Below, piece by piece: positions 3,580 to 21,469 of a DNA stretch of 64,000 bases; the first letter of the stretch is position 1, and each line of letters begins with the position of its first letter. Made by a program: the position numbers and the translations under genes. Source of the stretch: Sphingobacteriaceae bacterium (GTDB lineage: Bacteria; Bacteroidota; Bacteroidia; Sphingobacteriales; Sphingobacteriaceae); NCBI GenBank assembly GCA_029266635.1, contig JAQSWM010000006.1:62001-126000 (forward strand), given 5' to 3'. The notes beneath the pieces were generated by a model. The model saw nothing but the letters and a program-made list of their open reading frames with translations. It had not been told where the DNA came from and did not search any database.

Positions 3580-3993
3580 TTATTGCAATCTGATCTCGTA
3601 AGTGATTTCGATGCCTCCTTTTGCAAGCATATCATGAACTGAACAATACTTTTTTACTGCGAGTTCCGCTGCCTTAGCGGCTTTCGCCTGATCAATATTG
3701 CCTTTTAGCACAAACTCCATGTGGATACTTGTAAAAATCTTCGGCACTTCATCCCGTCGCCGGCCCTCAATGCTCACGGTGTAATCCTCAATTTTCTGCC
3801 GCTGCTTTTGCAGGATGCTGATCAGGTCCATAGATGCGCATGAGCCAAGTGCCATCAGCACCAGTTCCATCGGCCTTGCGCCGAGGTCTTGCCCGCCAAT
3901 TTCCGGCGAACCATCCATGTGTATTTTAACATTCGATGTTCCGGTACCTTCCAGATGCACGGCATCATTCACTCTTTTCAGCTCTACTTTCAT
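3580..3993 (-). CDS. OsmC/Ohr-family peroxidase-like protein
   Basis: The 137-aa protein has the OsmC fold signature: PMELVLMALGSCASMD with C52, and a second cysteine C117 in the helix YCSVHDM. In OsmC/Ohr enzymes these two cysteines reduce organic hydroperoxides at the cost of thiols. The GSCASMD form is more like the general OsmC/YhfA branch than classic Ohr, so the exact substrate is uncertain. Its ATG overlaps the stop of the upstream sulfhydrylase by 4 nt (ATGA), so the two are co-transcribed and probably translationally coupled. That links thiol or sulfur amino acid supply to peroxide detoxification, which is inference. The gene ends at the bidirectional terminator. Confidence 0.9.
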   Translation of the reverse strand: MKVELKRVNDAVHLEGTGTSNVKIHMDGSPEIGGQDLGARPMELVLMALGSCASMDLISILQKQRQKIEDYTVSIEGRRRDEVPKIFTSIHMEFVLKGNIDQAKAAKAAELAVKKYCSVHDMLAKGGIEITYEIRLQ

Positions 3994-5159
3994 TTGGATT
4001 GATCTACTGCTTTCGCGATGTCCTCTAAAATATCGTCTAAATCTTCCAGCCCGATTGACAGCCTGATCGATCCAGGGAAAATCCCGATGCTTGCCCGTTC
4101 CTCGTCGCTTAGCTTCGAATGCGTTGTCGAAGCGGGATGTGTGGCAATGGAGCGTGAGTCGCCGAGGTTGGACGTGATTAGGATCATGTTCAAGGCATCC
4201 AAAAAGCGCTTCGACCTTTCTAAGCCACCTTTTATGATAAACGTTACAATACCGCCGCCTTGCTTCATTTGCTTTTTCGCGAGTTCGTACTGTGGGTGCG
4301 AAGGCAAATGTGGATATCGAACTTGCTCTACTTCCGCATGGCTTTCTAGCAGTTTAGCCACAGCCAGAGCACTGCTGGAATGCCGGTCCATACGAACAGC
4401 CAGTGTTTCGAGGCTTTTCGACAACAGCCAGGCATTAAACGCCGACATTGCCGGACCAGTGTGCCGAATGAAAAACATCATTTCCTTCATCAGATCAGCA
4501 CGGCCAACCACCACGCCACCCAGCACACGCCCTTGTCCGTCCATGTACTTTGTGGCCGAATGGCTTACAATATCAATCCCGTACTTGATTGGCTTTTGCA
4601 GGTATGGCGTAGCAAAGCAATTATCTACATTAAGGATGATGTGCGGATATTTCTCTTTGAATGTTCCAAGCCACTCTAAATCCACGAGCTCAAGGCCAGG
4701 GTTAGACGGCGTTTCCAGGAATATCATTTTAGTTTCCGGGCGAATGGCCGCTTCCCACTCCTCCGGCTTCATTGCATCTACGTAAGTGGAGGTAATCCCC
4801 CATCGCGGCAGCAACTGAGTTAATAACTGGTGCGTAGAGCCAAAAATAGAGCGGCAGGATACAATATGATCGCCGCTCCGCAGCAATGCTGCAAAAGACG
4901 CAAATACCGCCGCCATTCCCGACGAAAACGCCAGCCCCGCCTCGGCACCTTCTAATTCACAAACTTTCTGAATAAACTCGCTTGTATTCGGGTTAGAGTA
5001 GCGGGAATAGATGATCCCCTCCTGCTCATCGGCAAAAACCGCTCTGCCCTGTTCGGCATCATCAAAAATAAAGCTGGATGTCAGGTATAAAGGTACCGAA
5101 TGCTCGCGATTGCTACTGCGAGGTGCTTGAGTACGTACCAGTTTGGATTGTTCTTTCAT
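3990..5159 (-). CDS. metZ: O-succinylhomoserine sulfhydrylase (Cys/Met metabolism PLP enzyme)
   Basis: This 389-aa protein is a type I fold PLP enzyme of the Cys/Met metabolism family. SRYSNPNT near residue 52, FSSGMAA near 79, and SATKYMDGQGR with the PLP-binding lysine K204 are all intact. The SRYSNPNT and KYMDGQGRVLGG forms match O-succinylhomoserine sulfhydrylase, which makes homocysteine from O-succinylhomoserine and sulfide in methionine synthesis. Cystathionine gamma-synthase or gamma-lyase activity is possible, because the family is hard to split by sequence. It heads a two-gene operon with the OsmC-family gene. A perfect TAAGTTTG box lies 30 nt upstream of the start. I see no SAM riboswitch in the short leader. 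Confidence 0.9.
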   Translation of the reverse strand: MKEQSKLVRTQAPRSSNREHSVPLYLTSSFIFDDAEQGRAVFADEQEGIIYSRYSNPNTSEFIQKVCELEGAEAGLAFSSGMAAVFASFAALLRSGDHIVSCRSIFGSTHQLLTQLLPRWGITSTYVDAMKPEEWEAAIRPETKMIFLETPSNPGLELVDLEWLGTFKEKYPHIILNVDNCFATPYLQKPIKYGIDIVSHSATKYMDGQGRVLGGVVVGRADLMKEMMFFIRHTGPAMSAFNAWLLSKSLETLAVRMDRHSSSALAVAKLLESHAEVEQVRYPHLPSHPQYELAKKQMKQGGGIVTFIIKGGLERSKRFLDALNMILITSNLGDSRSIATHPASTTHSKLSDEERASIGIFPGSIRLSIGLEDLDDILEDIAKAVDQSK

Positions 5160-5188
5160 TGCAAATCATTGCCTTAGAGGCTCTGCGG

Positions 5189-5196
5189 CAAACTTA
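5189..5196 (-). promoter_or_regulatory. -7 box (TAAGTTTG) of the metZ-osmC operon
   Basis: On the minus strand the bases are TAAGTTTG, a perfect TAnnTTTG match. This predicts a leader of roughly 24 nt before the ATG at 5159. No clear -33 element is seen. Confidence 0.45.
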
Positions 5197-5273
5197 CGGA
5201 ATGATAAGGAAAGAATTTTTGATAGTATGACAAAGACAATTTTTGACGTAATTTCAAAACACAAAATCTTCAA

Positions 5274-6213
5274 ATGAAACTTTTTATCAGCTGGTCGGGA
5301 GAATTAAGCCACCGAATAGCACTTGCATTAATGGACTGGTTCCCTTATGTAATTAATCAGGTCGTGCCGTTTGTGTCGAGCGAAAGCATTAGAAAAGGAG
5401 AAAGGTGGGGCTTAGATATACATTCTGAACTTAGCAAATCTAGATTTTGCTTAGTTTGCCTAACGCGGGAAAACTTGTCGGAACCATGGATTATGTTTGA
5501 AGCAGGAGCTATTTCGGGCAGCACCGGCAGATCAAGGGTGTGCGCCATCCTTTTCGATGGTTTAAGACAAAAAGATATTGGAGCTCCTTTGTCATTGTTT
5601 CAAAACTCCGGATTCGAAAGGGACGAATTTAGGAAGCTGTTATTATCTGTAAACGATTCTTTCGGTAAAAAGAAAATCAGTGAAGCCGTTCTTTTAAAGT
5701 CATTTGAAACATGATATCCCGACTTGGAAATCAAAATCCATAATATTCAGGCTTCTTACTCTCCTGAACGACCCAAAATACACGAGGATGAAACGCTTCT
5801 AAACACTATTTTAAAAACAACTAATTATATGTCAGATGTCATTACAAGCCTGAACTTTAAATTAGATACAGAGACGATTGATTTTGGACGTTTTACAACG
5901 GCTGAAACTATCCGTTTTTTCGACGAAACACACAATCATCCAATGAATCACATTGGGTCCGGTGTTAGTTGAAGATGCTAAAAAAAGCATCACATTAACT
6001 AATGCGGGCATGGAAGTTTCAGACTTGCCCAACTTGTTGCCTCGTGGTGTAGATCTTGATTTATTGTTTTATTCCGAAGATTATTCTTACTGGAAACTTA
6101 TGTTAATATTTCACAAAGGAAAAATGCTAATCAAAACCGAAAGCACAAATCTTACGCAAGAGGAGGAAAACAGATTGGGGCAGTGGGCGATTGGAAGACA
6201 CAACTATGGGTGA
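5274..6213 (+). pseudogene. TIR-domain protein, interrupted by an in-frame stop and a frameshift
   Basis: The first 146 codons encode a full TIR domain: MKLFISWSGE start, KGERWG, then SRFCLVCLTRENLSEPWIMFEAGAIS. This includes the WxxxE motif (W72, E76) that carries the catalytic glutamate in NAD-consuming TIRs. The frame stops at TGA (5712-5714) but continues without change as Y-P-D-L-E-I-K. Relatives I recall read F-E-x-W-W/Y-P-x-L-E here, so a TGG to TGA change is the simplest reading. That frame is open to 5972. The rest of the protein then appears in the +1 frame from about 5947 to the TGA at 6211, including KSITLTNAG, which looks like a winged-helix strand. Repaired length is about 313 aa. 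A free TIR domain may still be made from the first part. Sequencing error is the alternative. Confidence 0.7.
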
Positions 6214-6253
6214 GATATATGAACTCGGTCTTGCATGATTCTTGATTTACACG

Positions 6254-6261
6254 TATCTTTG
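6254..6261 (+). promoter_or_regulatory. Promoter of the RHH/PIN toxin-antitoxin operon (-7 TATCTTTG) with nearby CACGTG
   Basis: TATCTTTG matches TAnnTTTG exactly and has TTG at 6231-6233, about 20 nt upstream, as a -33 element. The antitoxin ATG is only 21 nt downstream. ACACGT occurs on both sides of the -7 box (6249-6254, and again within the palindrome CACGTG at 6274-6279). This would fit an operator bound by the ribbon-helix-helix antitoxin; the operator role is inference. Confidence 0.55.
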
Positions 6262-6281
6262 ATTGTAAATTCACACGTGCA

Positions 6282-6530
6282 ATGACAACGAAACTAACCC
6301 TTACTATTCAGCAGGATGTCATTAAAACTGCGAAGTCTTACGCTAAAAGCAACGGCCGGAGCCTCTCTGAGCTAATTGAGAATTATCTCAAAACCTTATC
6401 GGACAAAGATAAATCAAAGGAAAGTCTATCTCCCCGAGTAAAAAGACTGGTCGGTTCCATCTCACTACCGGAGAATGTCGATTACCGAAGCGTTCTTGAG
6501 GACGAGATCAACAAAAAACACGGAATTTGA
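6282..6530 (+). CDS. Ribbon-helix-helix antitoxin (DUF6364-type)
   Basis: This 82-aa protein opens MTTKLTLTIQQDVIKTAKSY, a beta strand then helix, followed by NGRSLSELIENYLKTL. Together these form a MetJ/Arc-like ribbon-helix-helix DNA-binding domain (residues ~1-42). The C-terminal half (SPRVKRLVGSISLPENVDYRSVL) is the toxin-binding tail common in DUF6364 antitoxins paired with PIN toxins. It should bind its own promoter and neutralise the downstream PIN protein. Its stop overlaps the TTG start of the toxin by 4 nt, typical for a coupled pair. The module lies directly behind the broken TIR gene. Confidence 0.85.
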   Translation: MTTKLTLTIQQDVIKTAKSYAKSNGRSLSELIENYLKTLSDKDKSKESLSPRVKRLVGSISLPENVDYRSVLEDEINKKHGI

Positions 6531-6955
6531 AGACGTTCTTTCTTGACACCAATGTAGTTATTGACCTGCTGGCTGACCGAAAGCCATTCTCTGCTTCTGC
6601 TTCCAAACTTTTCGAATATGCTGACAAGGGCGTAGTTAAGCTTTGTATTTCCGCTCTATCATATACAAATATCTATTATGTTGTCAAAAACGTCTGTTCG
6701 CACAAAGAGATGATCCTGATCCTGCGAGATCTGGAAGCACTTACTGAAACTTTGGACGTAACTAAAACAATCATTTCAAAATCCTTACACACAGATTTTA
6801 AAGACTTCGAAGATTCAGTGCAATATCTTACCGCTCTGTGGAACCCAAAAACCGATGCTATAGTGACACGAAATGTAAAGGATTTCAAGAAGAGTGGGTT
6901 GGCTGTCTTAACACCTGAAGAAACCTTGAGCATAATAGAAAGTTCGCTGAAATAG
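6527..6955 (+). CDS. PIN-domain toxin (VapC-like RNase)
   Basis: The 142-aa protein is a single PIN domain. The first acidic cluster is FLDTNVVIDLL (D7, D13), then E30, the central DFKDFEDSVQY (D93, E95, D96), and D119 in TRNVKDF. All four acidic positions that hold the metal in PIN nucleases are present. VapC-type toxins cut tRNA or rRNA. The start is TTG at 6527, inside the antitoxin stop (TTGA). No better start exists, because the next Met falls deep in the domain and would remove D7. It forms a two-gene operon with the RHH antitoxin. Confidence 0.87.
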   Translation: MKTFFLDTNVVIDLLADRKPFSASASKLFEYADKGVVKLCISALSYTNIYYVVKNVCSHKEMILILRDLEALTETLDVTKTIISKSLHTDFKDFEDSVQYLTALWNPKTDAIVTRNVKDFKKSGLAVLTPEETLSIIESSLK

Positions 6956-7035
6956 TGTCATCGACATTCACACGCCCATCAGCCGTTAGCTATCGGTAGC
7001 GAAAATAAATCCTACATTAGACTTAAAAACTCACA

Positions 7036-7473
7036 ATGACAAGAACAAGCACTTACCTCAATTTTACTCGTAGCACTGAAGAGGCTTTCAACTTCTACAA
7101 ATCCGTTTTTGGCGGAGAATTTATAGATGGGATCCATCGTTTCAGCGACGTCCCGGCTCAGGATGGCATGCCCCAAATGCCCGCTGAAGATGCTAACCTG
7201 GTTCTGCATGTGGAGCTTGCGATAACAGGAGGGCACGTTTTAATGGGAACAGATGCGCCGGAGAGCATGGGCTCTCAAGTAAATTTTGGCAACAATGTCT
7301 ATATCAATCTTGAGCCGGACACAAGAAAGGAAACCAAGGCGCTGTTTGATGCTTTGTCTGAAGGAGGAAAAGTAACCGCTGATCTGCAGGATATGTTTTG
7401 GGGAGCTTACTACGGTAGTTGCTTAGACAAATTCGGTGTGCAGTGGATGTTCAATTGTGTTGAATCTGCTTAA
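7036..7473 (+). CDS. VOC/PhnB-like glyoxalase-fold protein
   Basis: The 145-aa protein opens TYLNFTRSTEEAFNFYKSVFGGEF, the usual start of PhnB-like members of the vicinal oxygen chelate superfamily. It ends DMFWGAYYGSCLDKFGVQWMFN, where WGxxYGxxxDxFGxxW is the family's closing motif. H59 and an acidic residue in the second half could chelate a metal, but many PhnB-like proteins have no known reaction. The name PhnB does not imply phosphonate use here. It is a stand-alone gene, convergent with the phosphodiesterase gene 25 nt away. Confidence 0.85.
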   Translation: MTRTSTYLNFTRSTEEAFNFYKSVFGGEFIDGIHRFSDVPAQDGMPQMPAEDANLVLHVELAITGGHVLMGTDAPESMGSQVNFGNNVYINLEPDTRKETKALFDALSEGGKVTADLQDMFWGAYYGSCLDKFGVQWMFNCVESA

Positions 7474-7498
7474 ACCCTCTAACTTATTTGGTATTGGT

Positions 7499-8782
7499 TT
7501 ATTCTTTTTGCTCCATAAAAGACCGACGCTTTACGAGAATTTTCTTCAGAGCTTTCTTTTTACCATCTATTTTTTCCGTGTAAGGCAAACCCAAAATTTG
7601 AGTAATCAACGGGTACACGTTCACGTTCTCAAAGGGAGCAATTACAATATCTTTCTTGAAGGGCGGTCCCCACGCTATGAACGTGGCGTGCATATCTTTT
7701 ACTTTATACGGATCAAAGCCGTGCATGCCGGGTTTAGGTTTTTTATAAGAAAAAACCCGCGGCGATCTGGAAAGTAGAAGAATATCACCTATGCGGTTCA
7801 TCCGATCATCCTTCGTGCCGTAATGCAGGTGCCGAGGCATTTCGGATTTTAAATAAACGTCAAAATCGCTGTTGCTTTTTGCTTTGAGCGATTTATAAGC
7901 CGGTTCAATATCCCGCTTGTCTTTCGCGAAAAGCTGCAACATTACTTCGCTTCCGCTAATGATGAATTTTGAAGTATCAGCAACAGAATACGGGGAGATG
8001 AAGTGTTCCCGATCAATGTTGGTCATCCCATGATCAGAGACTAAGACAAAGCTCACATCCAAGCCGGTTTTTTTAACGGCTTCATTCATCGCGTTTACCG
8101 CAGAGTCGATGAAATGAACCTGCCGTTCAGTTTCCGGAGCATCAGGGCCGAAGTCGTGCCCGGCATGATCAACCTCCGGAAAGTAAACGGTGATGAGGTG
8201 TGGCCGGGTTTCTTCAGGAAGGCTCAACCAGTTTACAACCGCCTGAATACGTTCCTGTATCGGTATTTTCTCATTGTAGGAATAATAGTAAGTTGGATAC
8301 ACAGTTTTAATCGGCGCCTCAGAGCCCACCCAATAAAGACTCGCAGTAAGCATTTGCTGCTGCTCCGCCAAGACCCAAAGCGGTGTTCCTCCATACCAGG
8401 TAGAATCCGACACTTTCTTGGGATCCTTCATCGAGTAAAACTCCTTTCGGCCAGCATCGTAAAAGTTATTATTGATGACGCCGTGGTGAGATGGGTACAT
8501 CCCGGTAACCAATGAGTAATGGTTTGGAAAGGTTAGCGATGGAAAAGAAGGGATCATCGACTCAGCCCTGACGCCTTGTCCACTAAGTGCAAGCAAGTGT
8601 TTTGCCTGATACTTTTCGGCATAATCGTAGCGCATCCCATCCACCGAGATCATGATCACATAGGGTCTTTTCTGTTGCTCCGGCGAGTTGCGCCTGCCGG
8701 GGATGACATGCTGCGTAGTGTCTTGAGCGCTGCCAGATATTACCAGAAGAAGTAGTCCGGTAAGACAAAAATATTTAATCAT
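7499..8782 (-). CDS. Exported alkaline-phosphatase-superfamily enzyme (nucleotide pyrophosphatase/phosphodiesterase type)
   Basis: After a signal peptide (MIKYFCLTGLLLLVISGSAQ), the protein has the NPP/alkaline phosphatase fold: VIMISVDGMRYDY with a metal-binding Asp, then FPSLTFPNHYSLVTGMYPSHHGV, whose Thr is the nucleophile. EVDHAGHDFGPD and VSDHGMT supply further metal ligands, and MHGFDPY closes the site. It would hydrolyse phosphodiester or pyrophosphate bonds of nucleotides or related compounds in the periplasm. I use the ATG at 8782 because the signal peptide starts there; an in-frame ATG at 8806 adds eight polar residues. It is divergent from a small membrane protein gene. Confidence 0.88.
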   Translation of the reverse strand: MIKYFCLTGLLLLVISGSAQDTTQHVIPGRRNSPEQQKRPYVIMISVDGMRYDYAEKYQAKHLLALSGQGVRAESMIPSFPSLTFPNHYSLVTGMYPSHHGVINNNFYDAGRKEFYSMKDPKKVSDSTWYGGTPLWVLAEQQQMLTASLYWVGSEAPIKTVYPTYYYSYNEKIPIQERIQAVVNWLSLPEETRPHLITVYFPEVDHAGHDFGPDAPETERQVHFIDSAVNAMNEAVKKTGLDVSFVLVSDHGMTNIDREHFISPYSVADTSKFIISGSEVMLQLFAKDKRDIEPAYKSLKAKSNSDFDVYLKSEMPRHLHYGTKDDRMNRIGDILLLSRSPRVFSYKKPKPGMHGFDPYKVKDMHATFIAWGPPFKKDIVIAPFENVNVYPLITQILGLPYTEKIDGKKKALKKILVKRRSFMEQKE

Positions 8783-8837
8783 TGCGTGGTCTAGGAGATT
8801 TTGCATTTACTACCTTTAAAAGAATTTGACAGACACG

Positions 8838-9086
8838 ATGATATCTAAGGTTAAACTTTGGTACAATAGCTTGAAGCCTGGGATGCAGCTTTTTGTAAGC
8901 TATATTAATTACTGGCTATTTTGGCTTATATTATGGCACCTGTTAGAACCCACAATCTTACGAGAGAACTATACCTTATCTTATCATCTGCTGCACACCA
9001 GCATTATGAGCGTAGGCTCTATTGTCAGTGGCGATTGGCAGAAAATCAAAACATTAATCAACCCTCGCAGCAAGCAGACGAATTAA
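8838..9086 (+). CDS. Small membrane-associated protein, 82 aa, unknown
   Basis: From the ATG at 8838 the protein reads MISKVKLWYNSLKPGMQLF, then a hydrophobic segment around YINYWLFWLILWHLL, then a polar tail. It appears to have one membrane helix. A TTG four codons upstream (8826) is a weaker start. No family is recognised. A near-consensus -7 box (TACCTTTA, 8811-8818) precedes it. It is divergent from the phosphodiesterase gene, and its end overlaps the convergent uvrA stop by 4 nt. Confidence 0.5.
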   Translation: MISKVKLWYNSLKPGMQLFVSYINYWLFWLILWHLLEPTILRENYTLSYHLLHTSIMSVGSIVSGDWQKIKTLINPRSKQTN

Positions 9087-11884
9087 TCAAAACGCTCTTT
9101 TAAGACCTTGCCTGTGTAAGAATTCTCCTGTTTAATTAAATCCTCAGGCACACCTTCAAATACTACATTTCCCCCTTTGTCGCCACCGTCCGGTCCAATA
9201 TCAATCACCCAATCTGCACATTTGATCACGTCCATGTTATGCTCAATCACGAGGATGGTATTTCCCTGCTCTAGCAGCGCATCAAAAGATTTCATGAGCT
9301 TTTTGATGTCGTGAAAATGCAAGCCCGTTGTTGGCTCGTCGAAGATGAAAAGTGTCTTGCTGCTATTGTTTCCTTTCACCAGGAAAGATGCGAGTTTAAT
9401 GCGCTGTGCCTCCCCTCCGGACAAAGTATTTGATGATTGGCCCAAATGCACATACCCGAGCCCAACGTCTGCCAAAGGCTTTATTTTGTTCAGGATCTTA
9501 GGCTCACTGGCAAAGAATTCAAGCGCATCGTCGATTGTAAGATCCAGCACTTCAGAAATATTCTTGTCCTTATAGGTGATGTCGAGCACGTGTTGCTTGA
9601 AGCGCTTGCCTCCGCAGGATTCGCAGGGCAGGAAGATATCTGCCATAAACTGCATCTCTATTTTTACTTCGCCTTCGCCCTGGCAAACATCGCAGCGTCC
9701 ACCCTCCACGTTAAAAGAAAATGCAGCAGGCTTCAACCCCGCAGCCTTCGCCGATGCCTGTGAGGCGTACAAGTTCCGGATCTCGTCATAGGCTTTTACA
9801 TACGTAACCGGATTTGAACGTGAGGAACGGCCAATAGGATTTTGATCCACCAGCTCAACCTGCTCAATTTGTGCGTAGTCGCCTTCTAGAGAATCGTACG
9901 AGCCGGTTTGCTCGCCGGAATAATTGCCAATCGCTTTTTGTATCGCGGGCTGAAGAATCCGCTTAATTAGGCTTGTTTTGCCCGACCCGGAAACCCCTGT
10001 TACACAGGTAAGCACATTGAGCGGGAACTTTACGTCTATGTTTTTGAGGTTGTTCTCCCGTGCACCTTTAATCTCAATGGAATTGTTCCATTTGCGCCGG
10101 TGTTTCGGGATTTCGATCTCCTCTTCCCTGCTCAGGTACCTTCCGGTGAGGCTGTTTTTATCCTTTAAAATCTCCTGGTAATTGCCTGTAAAAACCAAGT
10201 TTCCGCCGTGTGTGCCGGCAGCGGGACCAATATCAATGATATGATCGGCAGCCTGCATGATTTCTTCCTCATGCTCAACCACCAACACAGTATTCCCTAC
10301 ATCCCGTAAGGATTTAAGAACGGTTATAAGCTGCTTAGTATCTTTCGGGTGCAACCCGATACTAGGTTCATCGAGTACGTAAACCGAGCCAACCAGGGAA
10401 CTTCCCAGCGAGGTGGCAAGATTGATGCGCTGCGATTCTCCGCCGGAGAGCGTATTGGAAAGACGGTTGAGCGTGAGATAACTAAGGCCTACATCATTCA
10501 AAAACTTGATCCGGTTGGTGATCTCCATCAGCAACCTCTTCGCTATTTTCGTTTCCGTTTCGTTCAGTTCAATATTGCGGAAAAATTCCAAAGCTGTGCT
10601 CAACGGCATCAGCACAATGTCTGTTATAGACATTCCGGAAATCTTCACATACGATGCATCTTGCCGTAAGCGGCTGCCTTTACACTCAGGACAATTTGTT
10701 TTGCCACGATATCGGGACAGCATCACCCGATACTGAATCTTATATGTTTGTGATTCCAGTTCTTTGAAGAACTCATTTAATCCCGAGAAATACTGATTTC
10801 CTTCCCACAGTACCTTCTTCTGCTCATCAGTGAGCTGGCTGTAAGCACGGTGGATGGGAAAATCAAACTTCAGCGCACTCCGTATTAATTTATCGAGGTA
10901 TTCCCGCATCTTCTCACCACGCCACGGGGCGATTGCACCATCGTAAACAGATTTGCTTTTATCGGGTATAACCAAATCTTCATCTATGCCGATGACTTTT
11001 CCATACCCTTCACACCGTTTACATGCGCCGTAGGGATTGTTGAAGCTGAAGAAGTTTGGAGTGGGCTCCTCGAAGCGCATTCCATCCAGTTCAAATCGAT
11101 CGCAGAAAAAATGAGAGTTTCCATTCTCTTCCACAAAGCAATCGCCCTTGCCCTCAAAAAATGCAGTTTGCACAGAATCCGCCAGACGGCTGAGCGTCTC
11201 CTCTTCATCATTTACACTAATGCGGTCTATTACAATTTTAACCCGACTCGCATCTTCCAGTGTCTCGTTATTGTGCGATCCGTCTTCCAACAGATCTTCA
11301 ATCTTAACCAAGCTTCCATCAAGTTGCACTCTCAAAAAACCTTTTTGAAGCAAAACTGCGAGTTCTTCTTTTAACGAACGATTGTTATGCGGGTAAAGCG
11401 GGCATAGTACCGTTACCGAGCTGCCTTCGGGCAAGTTAGAAACGAAATTTACTACGTCAGTAACCGTATCCCGTTTAACAATTTTGCCTGAGATTGGAGA
11501 ATATGTCTTCCCGATTCGGGAGAAAAGCAGTTTCAGGTAGTCGTATATCTCCGTAGAGGTGCCTACGGTGGAGCGGGGATTGCTTGTTATAACTTTCTGC
11601 TCTATCGCGATAGCCGGTGCAATCCCTTTAATGTAATCAACATCGGGTTTATTCATCCGGCCCATAAATTGTCTGGCGTACGATGAAAGGCTTTCCACGT
11701 AGCGGCGCTGTCCTTCCGCGTAAAGCGTGTCGAAAGCGAGCGAGGATTTGCCTGAGCCAGACATACCGGTAATAACAACCAGCTTATTTTTCGGAATAGC
11801 TACATCTATATTCTTTAGGTTGTGTACCCGTGCTCCTTTAATGATTATGTGTTTCTGCGGATCTTTCTCGGCTTCTTTACTCAT
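9083..11884 (-). CDS. uvrA: Excinuclease ABC subunit A (first of two UvrA copies)
   Basis: UvrA recognises DNA damage and loads UvrB in nucleotide excision repair. The 933-aa protein has two ABC ATPase halves, Walker [10 protein letters not shown] near residue 40 and GVSGSGKTS in the second half. Each half has its ABC signature ([18 protein letters not shown]) and Walker B ([20 protein letters not shown]). Zinc cysteine clusters [25 protein letters not shown] and CESCGGKRF are intact, as are the UvrB-binding and insertion regions. I start at ATG 11884 (MSKEAEK) rather than 11962, because the upstream 26 residues are not UvrA-like and overlap the likely leader. A second full uvrA lies 3 kb away at 15054-17897. 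Which copy does the bulk of repair is not visible. Confidence 0.95.
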
Positions 11885-12135
11885 GTATGACAAACCTCTC
11901 TCGGAAAATTTTCGTAATATTGTGTAAGGGTAAAAAGTAAGGATTGCAAAAATACGGCACACGAGCCAAGTTTCAGAATCATTACAATTTATTCTTGGAT
12001 AATTGCAGAATTTTTGTTTGATTTGAATAAGTCAACCAAACACACATAGATTAAACACATAGGAGAACGCTTATCGTATAAAACTCTACTTAAAAATTTC
12101 AGTTTATTAACAAGGGGAAATAAAGTAGGAGTCCT

Positions 12136-18817: not shown

Positions 18818-18985
18818 TTAATTTTTATTGGTGAAACAAAAATTTGGGCAAATGTACTTATTATAGTCCTTGCAGCCAAATAGTTACGTTGTTGTGTTAT
18901 CGCGGCACCACTAAAAAAGCCTCTCTATCACCTTCCCAAGACCTCTGAAAACAAAACCCATTGGCTCTGCTGAGGTTATTTGTAG

Positions 18986-18993
18986 TATCTTTG
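18986..18993 (+). promoter_or_regulatory. -7 box (TATCTTTG) upstream of the pseudouridine synthase gene
   Basis: A perfect TAnnTTTG match lies 33 nt before the ATG at 19027. It decides the start: an in-frame ATG at 18961 is upstream of this promoter and would not be on the transcript. Confidence 0.6.
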
Positions 18994-19026
18994 CACCCCT
19001 CTAAACAAGAGGACAAAATTTGCATT

Positions 19027-20277
19027 ATGCCAATCAATAATAACCGGAACAGTCGCGACGACAAATCCAAAAGACCTTCCCGCAGTTCCGCATCAGATTC
19101 AAGCTCAAAACCATTCCGTAGAAAGCCCGACGGTGCCGACTCTTCAAACGGCGAGGGCAAGAAATTGTTTGGATCTGAGCACAAGCGTCCATTCAAAAGT
19201 GGCTTTAAGAAGGCTGACGACAAACCAGCTCGAACTGGCGAACGGTTTGCGAAACCATCTTCCAGAGCGGGCGAAGGCACCCCGGAGCGCAAGCCTTTCG
19301 GAAAATCTGCAGAAAACAAATTTGGCAAGTCAGAAAGGCCTTATCGCCGAAAGGAAGAGGGTCAAGCCAACGATAATAAATTCGGGAAAGATAAACCTGG
19401 CTTTAGTTCAGAAAGGCCATCCCGCTATGGCAAAGCCGATACCGGCAAGCCTTACAAAAAAGACTTCGGAGATAAAAGAAGCTACGCCGGAGATCGCAAA
19501 CGGACAAGTGAAAGCAAGCCAGCCACACCAAGAGCCAAAAAAACCTCGGAAGATGATGGGCTTATCCGGTTAAACCGATATATATCAAACGCGGGTATCT
19601 GCTCACGCAGAAAAGCGGACGAGCTAATTGAAGCCGGGGTTATCACTGTAAACGGCGAAGTAGTTAACGAGCTTGGCGCAAAAGTGAACCCAATGAAAGA
19701 CGTTGTCCGTTATAACGGAGAAACTTTGAAGCGTGAGAAAATGGTTTACGTGCTGCTTAACAAGCCAAAGGATTATATCACTACTACAGATGATCCGCAC
19801 GAAAGACGCACAGTTATGCAATTGGTTGAAAAAGCTTCGAGAGAACGCATTTATCCGGTGGGAAGACTGGACCGAAACACCACCGGCTTGCTGTTGATGA
19901 CCAACGACGGCGATTTGACAGACAAACTTTCGCATCCAAAAAATAATGTTACCAAGATTTACAATGTTGAACTGAACAGGAGCTTGTCGCAGGGAGATAT
20001 GAATAAAATCGCGTACGGGCTTGAACTTGAAGACGGCTTGATCAAGCCGGATGAAGTTAGCTACGTACAAGGCGGCAGCAAACGCGAAGTTGGCATTCAG
20101 ATTCACAGCGGCAAAAACCGTATTGTACGGCGGATTTTTGAACATCTCGGTTATGAGGTAGTCAAATTAGACCGCGTGGTTTACGCCAATCTAACCAAGA
20201 AAGATCTGCCACGCGGGCGGTGGAGATACCTCGAAGAAAAAGAGATTATTCAACTCAAACATTTGATAAAATCATAA
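19027..20277 (+). CDS. rluB: RsuA/RluB-family rRNA pseudouridine synthase with long disordered N-terminus
   Basis: The C-terminal ~240 residues are a complete enzyme: an S4 RNA-binding domain (IRLNRYISNAGICSRRKADE) and the pseudouridine synthase core with the catalytic aspartate in VGRLDRNTTGLLLMTNDGD. It ends with IHSGKNRIVRRIFEHLGYEV. It should modify 23S rRNA (RluB-like) or 16S rRNA; RluB is the better guess for Bacteroidetes. The first ~175 residues are low complexity, rich in Lys, Arg, Ser, Gly and Phe, with repeated KPF/RPF-type motifs and no globular fold. Such tails are common in this phylum and may bind RNA. I start at MPINNN because the promoter lies just upstream. Confidence 0.88.
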   Translation: MPINNNRNSRDDKSKRPSRSSASDSSSKPFRRKPDGADSSNGEGKKLFGSEHKRPFKSGFKKADDKPARTGERFAKPSSRAGEGTPERKPFGKSAENKFGKSERPYRRKEEGQANDNKFGKDKPGFSSERPSRYGKADTGKPYKKDFGDKRSYAGDRKRTSESKPATPRAKKTSEDDGLIRLNRYISNAGICSRRKADELIEAGVITVNGEVVNELGAKVNPMKDVVRYNGETLKREKMVYVLLNKPKDYITTTDDPHERRTVMQLVEKASRERIYPVGRLDRNTTGLLLMTNDGDLTDKLSHPKNNVTKIYNVELNRSLSQGDMNKIAYGLELEDGLIKPDEVSYVQGGSKREVGIQIHSGKNRIVRRIFEHLGYEVVKLDRVVYANLTKKDLPRGRWRYLEEKEIIQLKHLIKS

Positions 20278-20344: not shown

Positions 20345-21469
20345 ATGAAACTCCAAATGTTAATTGCATTAAGCCTGATTGGCGCAACTCCCGCAACACA
20401 CGCACAAACCAAATTCAACTTACTGATTGGCACTTACACAAATCCCGGCAAAAGTGAAGGCATCTATGTGTATGAGTTCGACAGCCAGACAGGCGCCCTA
20501 AGCTATAAAAACAAGGTTGGGGGAATCAAAAACCCGACCTTCCTGGCTATTTCGCCGGATGAGAATATTGTTTACGCGGTGAACTCACAGGATATTGGGA
20601 ATATCTTTTCGTACAAATTTGATCGCCCAACTGGCAGCCTTGAGTTTCAAAGCAAGCAGCCAGCCGGCGGAGATAATCCATGCTACGTAGCTGTAGATTC
20701 ACACAGTAGATACGTTTTTTCCGGGAATTACGGCGGGGGCAGCCTTTCTGCGATTCCATTGAATAAAGATGGATCGCTGGCGGAAAACAGCCAGGTGATT
20801 AAGCATGAAGGAAGCAGCATAGATCCGGAAAGGCAAGACAAGCCCTACGTACATTCGGTTGTGCTTTCGCCCGATGAACACTTTCTCTTTGTTCAAGATT
20901 TGGGCACTGACAAACTCTACAATTACAAATTCGACCCAAACGCTCCTGTTCCGCTTACGCCTGCAGGCCAGGCAACGGTAAGCGTGACTCCCGGCAGCGG
21001 CCCGCGTCACATTATCTTCCATCCCAAAAAAAAACTAGCGTATGTTATCCATGAAATGGGTGGCATTATCAGCTCATTTCATTATAACGATGGAGAGCTT
21101 TCGCCAATAGAGGTTGTGTCGATGGCGGCGCCAGGCTTCACCGGCGAGATGCGCTCGGCGGCTATACACATTTCTTCAGATGGGAAATTCCTGTATGGCT
21201 CAAATCGCGGTGAGGCTAACAATATTGTCATCTATTCGATCGACGAAAAGACCGGTCAGCTTACGCTCGTGGGCAGGCAATCAGCCATTGGCAAGGGCCC
21301 GCGAGATTTCGCCATAGACCCAACAGGCAATTTCATGTTGATTGCTAATCAGGACTCGAATGATATTTACGTTTTGAAACGTGACAAAAAAACAGGCATT
21401 CCGAGCGAAACGGTAGCAAAAATCGATGTGTTCGCCCCGGTATGCCTGAAATTCGCATCCGTAAAATGA
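20345..21469 (+). CDS. Exported lactonase-family beta-propeller protein
   Basis: The 374-aa protein has a signal peptide (cleavage after THAQ), then a seven-bladed propeller of the lactonase/6-phosphogluconolactonase (Pgl) family. LLIGTYTNPGKSEGIYVYEFD, GGNPCYVAV-like GGDNPCYVAVD, NYGGGSLS, HSVVLSPDEHFLFVQDLGTDK and GPRHIIFHP are family blocks. Because it carries a signal peptide, it acts in the periplasm, so a role in the cytosolic pentose phosphate pathway is unlikely; a sugar lactone or similar is possible. Its TGA overlaps the comF start by 4 nt. Confidence 0.85.
   Translation: MKLQMLIALSLIGATPATHAQTKFNLLIGTYTNPGKSEGIYVYEFDSQTGALSYKNKVGGIKNPTFLAISPDENIVYAVNSQDIGNIFSYKFDRPTGSLEFQSKQPAGGDNPCYVAVDSHSRYVFSGNYGGGSLSAIPLNKDGSLAENSQVIKHEGSSIDPERQDKPYVHSVVLSPDEHFLFVQDLGTDKLYNYKFDPNAPVPLTPAGQATVSVTPGSGPRHIIFHPKKKLAYVIHEMGGIISSFHYNDGELSPIEVVSMAAPGFTGEMRSAAIHISSDGKFLYGSNRGEANNIVIYSIDEKTGQLTLVGRQSAIGKGPRDFAIDPTGNFMLIANQDSNDIYVLKRDKKTGIPSETVAKIDVFAPVCLKFASVK

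What the first reader, a model, noticed from the sequence alone, without database searches (positions are those of the whole stretch)
5274..6213. TIR gene stopped by one codon right after the TIR domain, then shifted
The frame of the TIR domain (WxxxE intact, W72/E76) ends in TGA at 5712, yet the same frame continues for 86 codons with family-like sequence (Y-P-D-L-E), and a second part follows in +1 frame to 6213. Either the gene is dying, or sequencing errors broke it, or the cell keeps a free TIR domain. The first part alone would make a 146-aa free TIR, which could be active.
Basis: partly seen in the sequence, partly recalled or inferred. Interest (0 to 1): 0.6.

Follow-up and report, generated by a model that had tools for sequence, protein, structure and literature searches.

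The report
Broken copy of phage-defence TIR gene
A horizontally acquired bacterial gene of a known phage-defence family (a TIR enzyme with a C-terminal partner region) has been broken by a stop codon and a later frame change; this looks like ordinary gene decay, and the idea that the cell keeps a free TIR piece on purpose has no support.

Summary
The TIR frame (5274-5711) ends at TGA 5712-5714. The same frame stays open and family-like to 5969, then coding passes to the +1 frame near 5948-5957 and ends at 6213. In 105 intact relatives the stop's column is Tyr, Trp or Phe in 83. Intact relatives are 215-484 aa (median 278) and none ends there, so the stop is not the natural end. AlphaFold places it inside a confident helix (137-161), just past the compact TIR core (1-128). 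Other relatives with in-frame stops (3 of 109) have them elsewhere, so truncation after the TIR does not recur. A frame scan of the window found no other broken gene (simulated deletions found 59/60, stops 55/60), which disfavours generic sequencing error. Best reading: a young pseudogene of the TIR family whose tested member is the TIR protein of P2-like phage AC1's defence locus (PADLOC TIR-TM; Rousset 2022). It lies in low-GC DNA with a toxin-antitoxin pair, between genes that are neighbours in three sister genera. The TIR core and WxxxE motif are intact, so a free TIR product is possible, but nothing shows selection for it. Ordinary; low interest.

The parts
5274..5711 (+). TIR domain part, 146 aa, WxxxE (W72, E76) intact
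   Evidence: Pfam TIR_2 E 2.5e-6; PADLOC TIR-TM E 3.2e-55 over profile 1-144 of 293; phrog_13899 E 7e-46; AlphaFold pLDDT mostly above 90
5712..5714 (+). In-frame TGA, codon 147, at a column that is Tyr/Trp/Phe in 83 of 105 intact relatives
5715..5969 (+). Same frame continued after the stop: rest of the helix, linker and the conserved second helix; coding-like
   Evidence: homology continues to about residue 190; codon score positive in this frame only
5948..5957 (+). Approximate place of the frame change to +1; no ATG near
   Evidence: frame scan calls the change at 5948; the downstream frame has no ATG until +62
5953..6213 (+). C-terminal module in the +1 frame, no detectable relatives
   Evidence: codon score positive in this frame only; no hits in Pfam, PADLOC, PHROGs, plasmids, phages; one E 6.7e-4 hit inside an 813-aa frame judged chance
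6282..6530 (+). DUF6364 (ribbon-helix-helix-like) putative antitoxin, intact neighbour
   Evidence: Pfam PF19891 E 2.2e-24
6527..6955 (+). PIN-domain (PIN_3) putative VapC-like toxin, intact neighbour, TTG start overlapping the antitoxin stop
   Evidence: Pfam PF13470 E 8.7e-18

Best explanation
The locus is a young pseudogene of a horizontally acquired TIR phage-defence gene. Shown: the intact relatives are single chains of an N-terminal TIR domain, a helix, a linker, a second conserved helix and a variable C-terminal module; here that chain is interrupted by a stop in the helix after the TIR core and by a frame change in the C-terminal module. Inferred from the family: the intact ancestor would be a latent NAD-consuming or NAD-signalling TIR enzyme switched on through its C-terminal module during phage infection, and losing that module would disarm the sensing. 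Also inferred: the broken gene persists because decay is recent. A 146-aa TIR core may still be made, but whether it is stable or active is unknown.
For: Homology runs through the stop. The stop's column is aromatic in most of 105 intact relatives, and no intact relative is shorter than 215 aa. Coding signal exists in exactly the frames named. All 13 E. coli copies of the AC1-type gene match at 99.7% or more over the full 948 bases, each annotated as a TIR protein. Only this gene in the window shows a frame change that is not a junction of two complete genes. GC is 0.39, lowest 1.7% of the window, and metB and uvrA, which flank the region here, are adjacent in three sister genera, so the region was acquired. 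Of 49 strongly conserved TIR positions 39 are kept (80%, 9th percentile of relatives), including W72 and E76: little erosion, so recent. The nearest tested relative is the TIR of phage AC1, 43% identical, whose three-gene locus protects E. coli C against lambda and LF82_P8 (PMC9122126).
Against: No close relative (best 49% identity) exists to date the lesions or measure dN/dS. No reads were available, so an assembly error cannot be excluded. The C-terminal module has no relatives, so the frame there rests on codon statistics and on openness. The defence function is inferred from relatives and was not tested in this organism.
Confidence: 0.8

Rival explanations
1. The gene is intact in the organism and the stop and frame change are sequencing or assembly errors.
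For: No reads held; the region is AT-rich; completeness 95.8% in 18 contigs does not guarantee polish.
Against: No other broken gene was found in the 64-kb window with a scan that recovers 59/60 simulated deletions and 55/60 simulated stops. At the 95% upper error rate this allows, two lesions in this gene has p about 0.0014. One lesion is an in-frame stop within an otherwise open frame, not a length error.
Confidence: 0.1
2. The cell keeps a free 146-aa TIR domain as a working protein (a constitutive or partner-driven NADase, or a decoy).
For: The TIR core (1-128) and WxxxE are complete and confidently folded. The first part has no lesion. In a screen of 152 bacterial TIR domains 28 had NADase activity in vitro (PMC9092222).
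Against: None of the intact relatives ends near residue 146; the shortest is 215 aa. The cut falls inside a helix that continues to residue 161. Other stops in the family come after residues 40, 96 and 131. Both lesions falling after codon 146 has p about 0.28 by chance. Downstream sequence is still coding-like, so the truncation is recent.
Confidence: 0.06
3. TGA is read through or recoded, or the pieces are made as separate chains by reinitiation at TTG 5724.
For: The frame is open on both sides of the TGA; a TTG (5724) lies just after it.
Against: TGA ends 8 of 45 long ORFs in the window and Trp is coded TGG 168 times in them. No relative has a conserved stop there. The frame change would still break the product. 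No relative is split.
Confidence: 0.03

Closest known systems
TIR protein of the P2-like phage AC1 defence locus (P2AC1_00002; PADLOC PDLC03016 TIR-TM; Rousset et al. 2022, PMC9122126)
   Same: N-terminal TIR of the same family (43% identity over residues 1-159), same order of TIR, helix, linker, conserved helix, C-terminal module
   Different: AC1's is an unbroken 315-aa chain next to two transmembrane-protein genes (2TM and 1TM); the window has neither within the flanks searched, and its C-terminal module is unrelated by sequence
PHROG phrog_13899 (unknown function)
   Same: E 7e-54 over residues 1-194 of the read-through
   Different: the match stops where the window's own C-terminal module begins
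AbTIR and SpbK (bacterial TIR NADases with solved structures)
   Same: TIR fold, and the WxxxE glutamate aligns with that of AbTIR
   Different: remote (AbTIR profile E 3e-4); both carry their TIR at the C-terminus (SpbK from PMC12847820; AbTIR from own knowledge)

Membership tests
PADLOC TIR-TM / AC1-type defence TIR | N-terminal TIR matching the TIR-TM profile | tested here: met
   E 3.2e-55, residues 1-145
PADLOC TIR-TM / AC1-type defence TIR | WxxxE catalytic motif | tested here: met
   W72 and E76, kept in 99% and 100% of relatives
PADLOC TIR-TM / AC1-type defence TIR | One unbroken chain of about 215-484 aa | tested here: not met
   stop at codon 147 and a later frame change
AC1 three-gene system (2TM, 1TM, TIR) | 2TM and 1TM partner genes beside the TIR | tested here: not met
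   none by the window gene; of 110 loci only L042, L077 and L078 have them
AC1 three-gene system (2TM, 1TM, TIR) | Protection against phage | not testable with these tools
   shown for AC1 in PMC9122126, not for this gene
TIR NADase | NAD hydrolysis or cyclisation | not testable with these tools
   fold and motif only

The most novel reading that the evidence does not exclude
Loss of the C-terminal module left a free, active TIR domain that the cell tolerates or uses, so that a sensor-less TIR arose from a defence gene by a single stop.
Probability: 0.05. Interest if true: 0.5.

Novelty: new member of a known kind. Interest (0 to 1): 0.15.

Why it matters
It matters little by itself: one more decayed defence gene. 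It does give a clean example of a TIR defence gene disarmed in its C-terminal half while its catalytic half is still intact. It also shows that this TIR family is widespread phage cargo, usually without the transmembrane partners of the one tested member, so what its C-terminal modules sense is an open question.

Tried and rejected
Natural end at residue 146: rejected, no intact relative ends there. Different genetic code or conserved recoding: rejected. Fold of the whole read-through from one sequence: mean pLDDT 32, unusable. Relatives of the C-terminal module: none found in Pfam, PADLOC, PHROGs, plasmids, phages, IMG/VR or 400 genomes of the order; a weak hit in an 813-aa frame that reads as a glycoside hydrolase was judged chance. 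Partner genes 2TM/1TM near the window gene: none. Two frame-scan versions were mis-set: in the first the frame-shift cost was too high and its control found 0 of 30; the second missed all simulated stops. Only one search is used. Direct repeats marking the ends of the insert: none convincing.

Full report
OBSERVATION. The ORF at 5274-5714 codes 146 aa and ends in TGA 5712-5714. The same frame is open from 5715 to 5969 and starts with YPDLE; the +1 frame is open from 5953 to the stop that ends at 6213. Codon scores are positive for frame 0 of 5274-5711, frame 0 of 5715-5950 and the 5953 frame, and negative for all the other frames of each piece. The score of the TIR part itself is weak (0.012 per codon, against a 5th percentile of 0.04 for the window's own genes), as expected of a foreign gene.

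WHAT IT IS. The 146 aa match Pfam TIR_2 and, much more strongly, PADLOC model TIR-TM (E 3.2e-55) and phrog_13899. Relatives were collected from the same family, class and phylum, from GTDB genomes, from phages and from IMG/VR. In 105 intact relatives the column of the stop is Tyr 41, Trp 34, Phe 8, and the next column is Trp in 96. Among 102 intact relatives that start at residue 1 the length runs from 215 to 484 aa, median 278. So the stop interrupts a longer protein. The conserved part goes on to about residue 190 and then gives way to a variable C-terminal module; the window's module has no detectable relatives.

STRUCTURE. With 54 sequences AlphaFold gives mean pLDDT 86. The TIR core spans 2-128; a helix runs from 137 to 161 at pLDDT about 97, and the stop at 147 cuts it; a second helix runs from 171 to 201. 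Foldseek finds TIR structures (SPARTA TIR-APAZ, SpbK, plant TIRs), and a profile search aligns the WxxxE glutamate with that of AbTIR. The truncated product would keep the whole core and less than half of the extra helix.

NEAREST TESTED RELATIVE. The TIR of P2-like phage AC1 (43% identity over residues 1-159) matches TIR-TM over nearly its full length, and the gene before it matches PADLOC 1TM-TIR. Rousset et al. 2022 (PMC9122126, read) report that AC1 lysogens, and the cloned three genes, protect E. coli C against lambda and LF82_P8. In 13 E. coli genomes this gene is intact. Of 110 loci only three, counting AC1 itself, have the two membrane-protein partners next to the TIR; the window has none.

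LESION OR ERROR. A frame scan of the window with tested power (59/60 deletions, 55/60 stops) frame changes. Thirteen have an ATG of the next gene within 30 bases; the one at 20244 lies between two complete ORFs, 18961-20277 and 20345-21469; the remaining one is 5948. The two in-frame stops it calls, 28848 and 47216, are the ends of intact genes. The scan did not itself call the TGA of 5712, because the codon signal of the TIR part is weak; that lesion rests on homology. Local sequencing error is unlikely (p about 0.0014 at the 95% upper error rate), not excluded. The scan covered the window only.

FREE TIR. Nothing supports selection for a free TIR. Three other relatives of 109 carry in-frame stops, after residues 131, 96 and 40. 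Both lesions falling after codon 146 has p about 0.28. TIR-domain screens show activity in a minority of domains (28 of 152, PMC9092222), so activity of this one cannot be assumed.

SETTING. metB-like (3990-5159, -) and uvrA (9083-11962, -) flank the region. In L054, L055 and L056, from three other genera of the family, these two genes are adjacent. In the window the TIR gene, a DUF6364/PIN toxin-antitoxin-like pair, a glyoxalase-like gene and a phosphodiesterase gene lie between them. The TIR gene's GC is 0.39 against about 0.45. The region is best read as acquired DNA.

VERDICT. A young pseudogene of a known defence family; ordinary.

Noticed in passing
window 5160-9082: About 3.9 kb (TIR pseudogene, DUF6364/PIN pair, glyoxalase-like gene, phosphodiesterase gene) lie between metB and uvrA, which are adjacent in three sister genera (L054, L055, L056).
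   Followed up: partly
window 6282-6955: Intact DUF6364 / PIN_3 toxin-antitoxin-like pair directly after the TIR pseudogene; the toxin's TTG start overlaps the antitoxin's stop.
   Followed up: partly
L033 1501-2043: A relative in another family of the class has an in-frame TAA after residue 131 with the rest of the frame open: a second, independent broken copy.
   Followed up: partly
L006 and L014 (also L005, L007, L016-L018): Members of two distant TIR groups (23% identity in the TIR) share a related C-terminal module (29% identity, E 2e-21): the modules look exchangeable.
   Followed up: partly
L069-L148: At least 94 IMG/VR stretches encode this TIR family (80 kept); it is common phage or prophage cargo, nearly always without the 2TM/1TM partners of phage AC1.
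   Followed up: partly
L001 1501-1791 (contig C7): A second TIR_2 domain protein (197-aa frame), not similar enough to be found with the first, elsewhere in the same genome.
   Followed up: no
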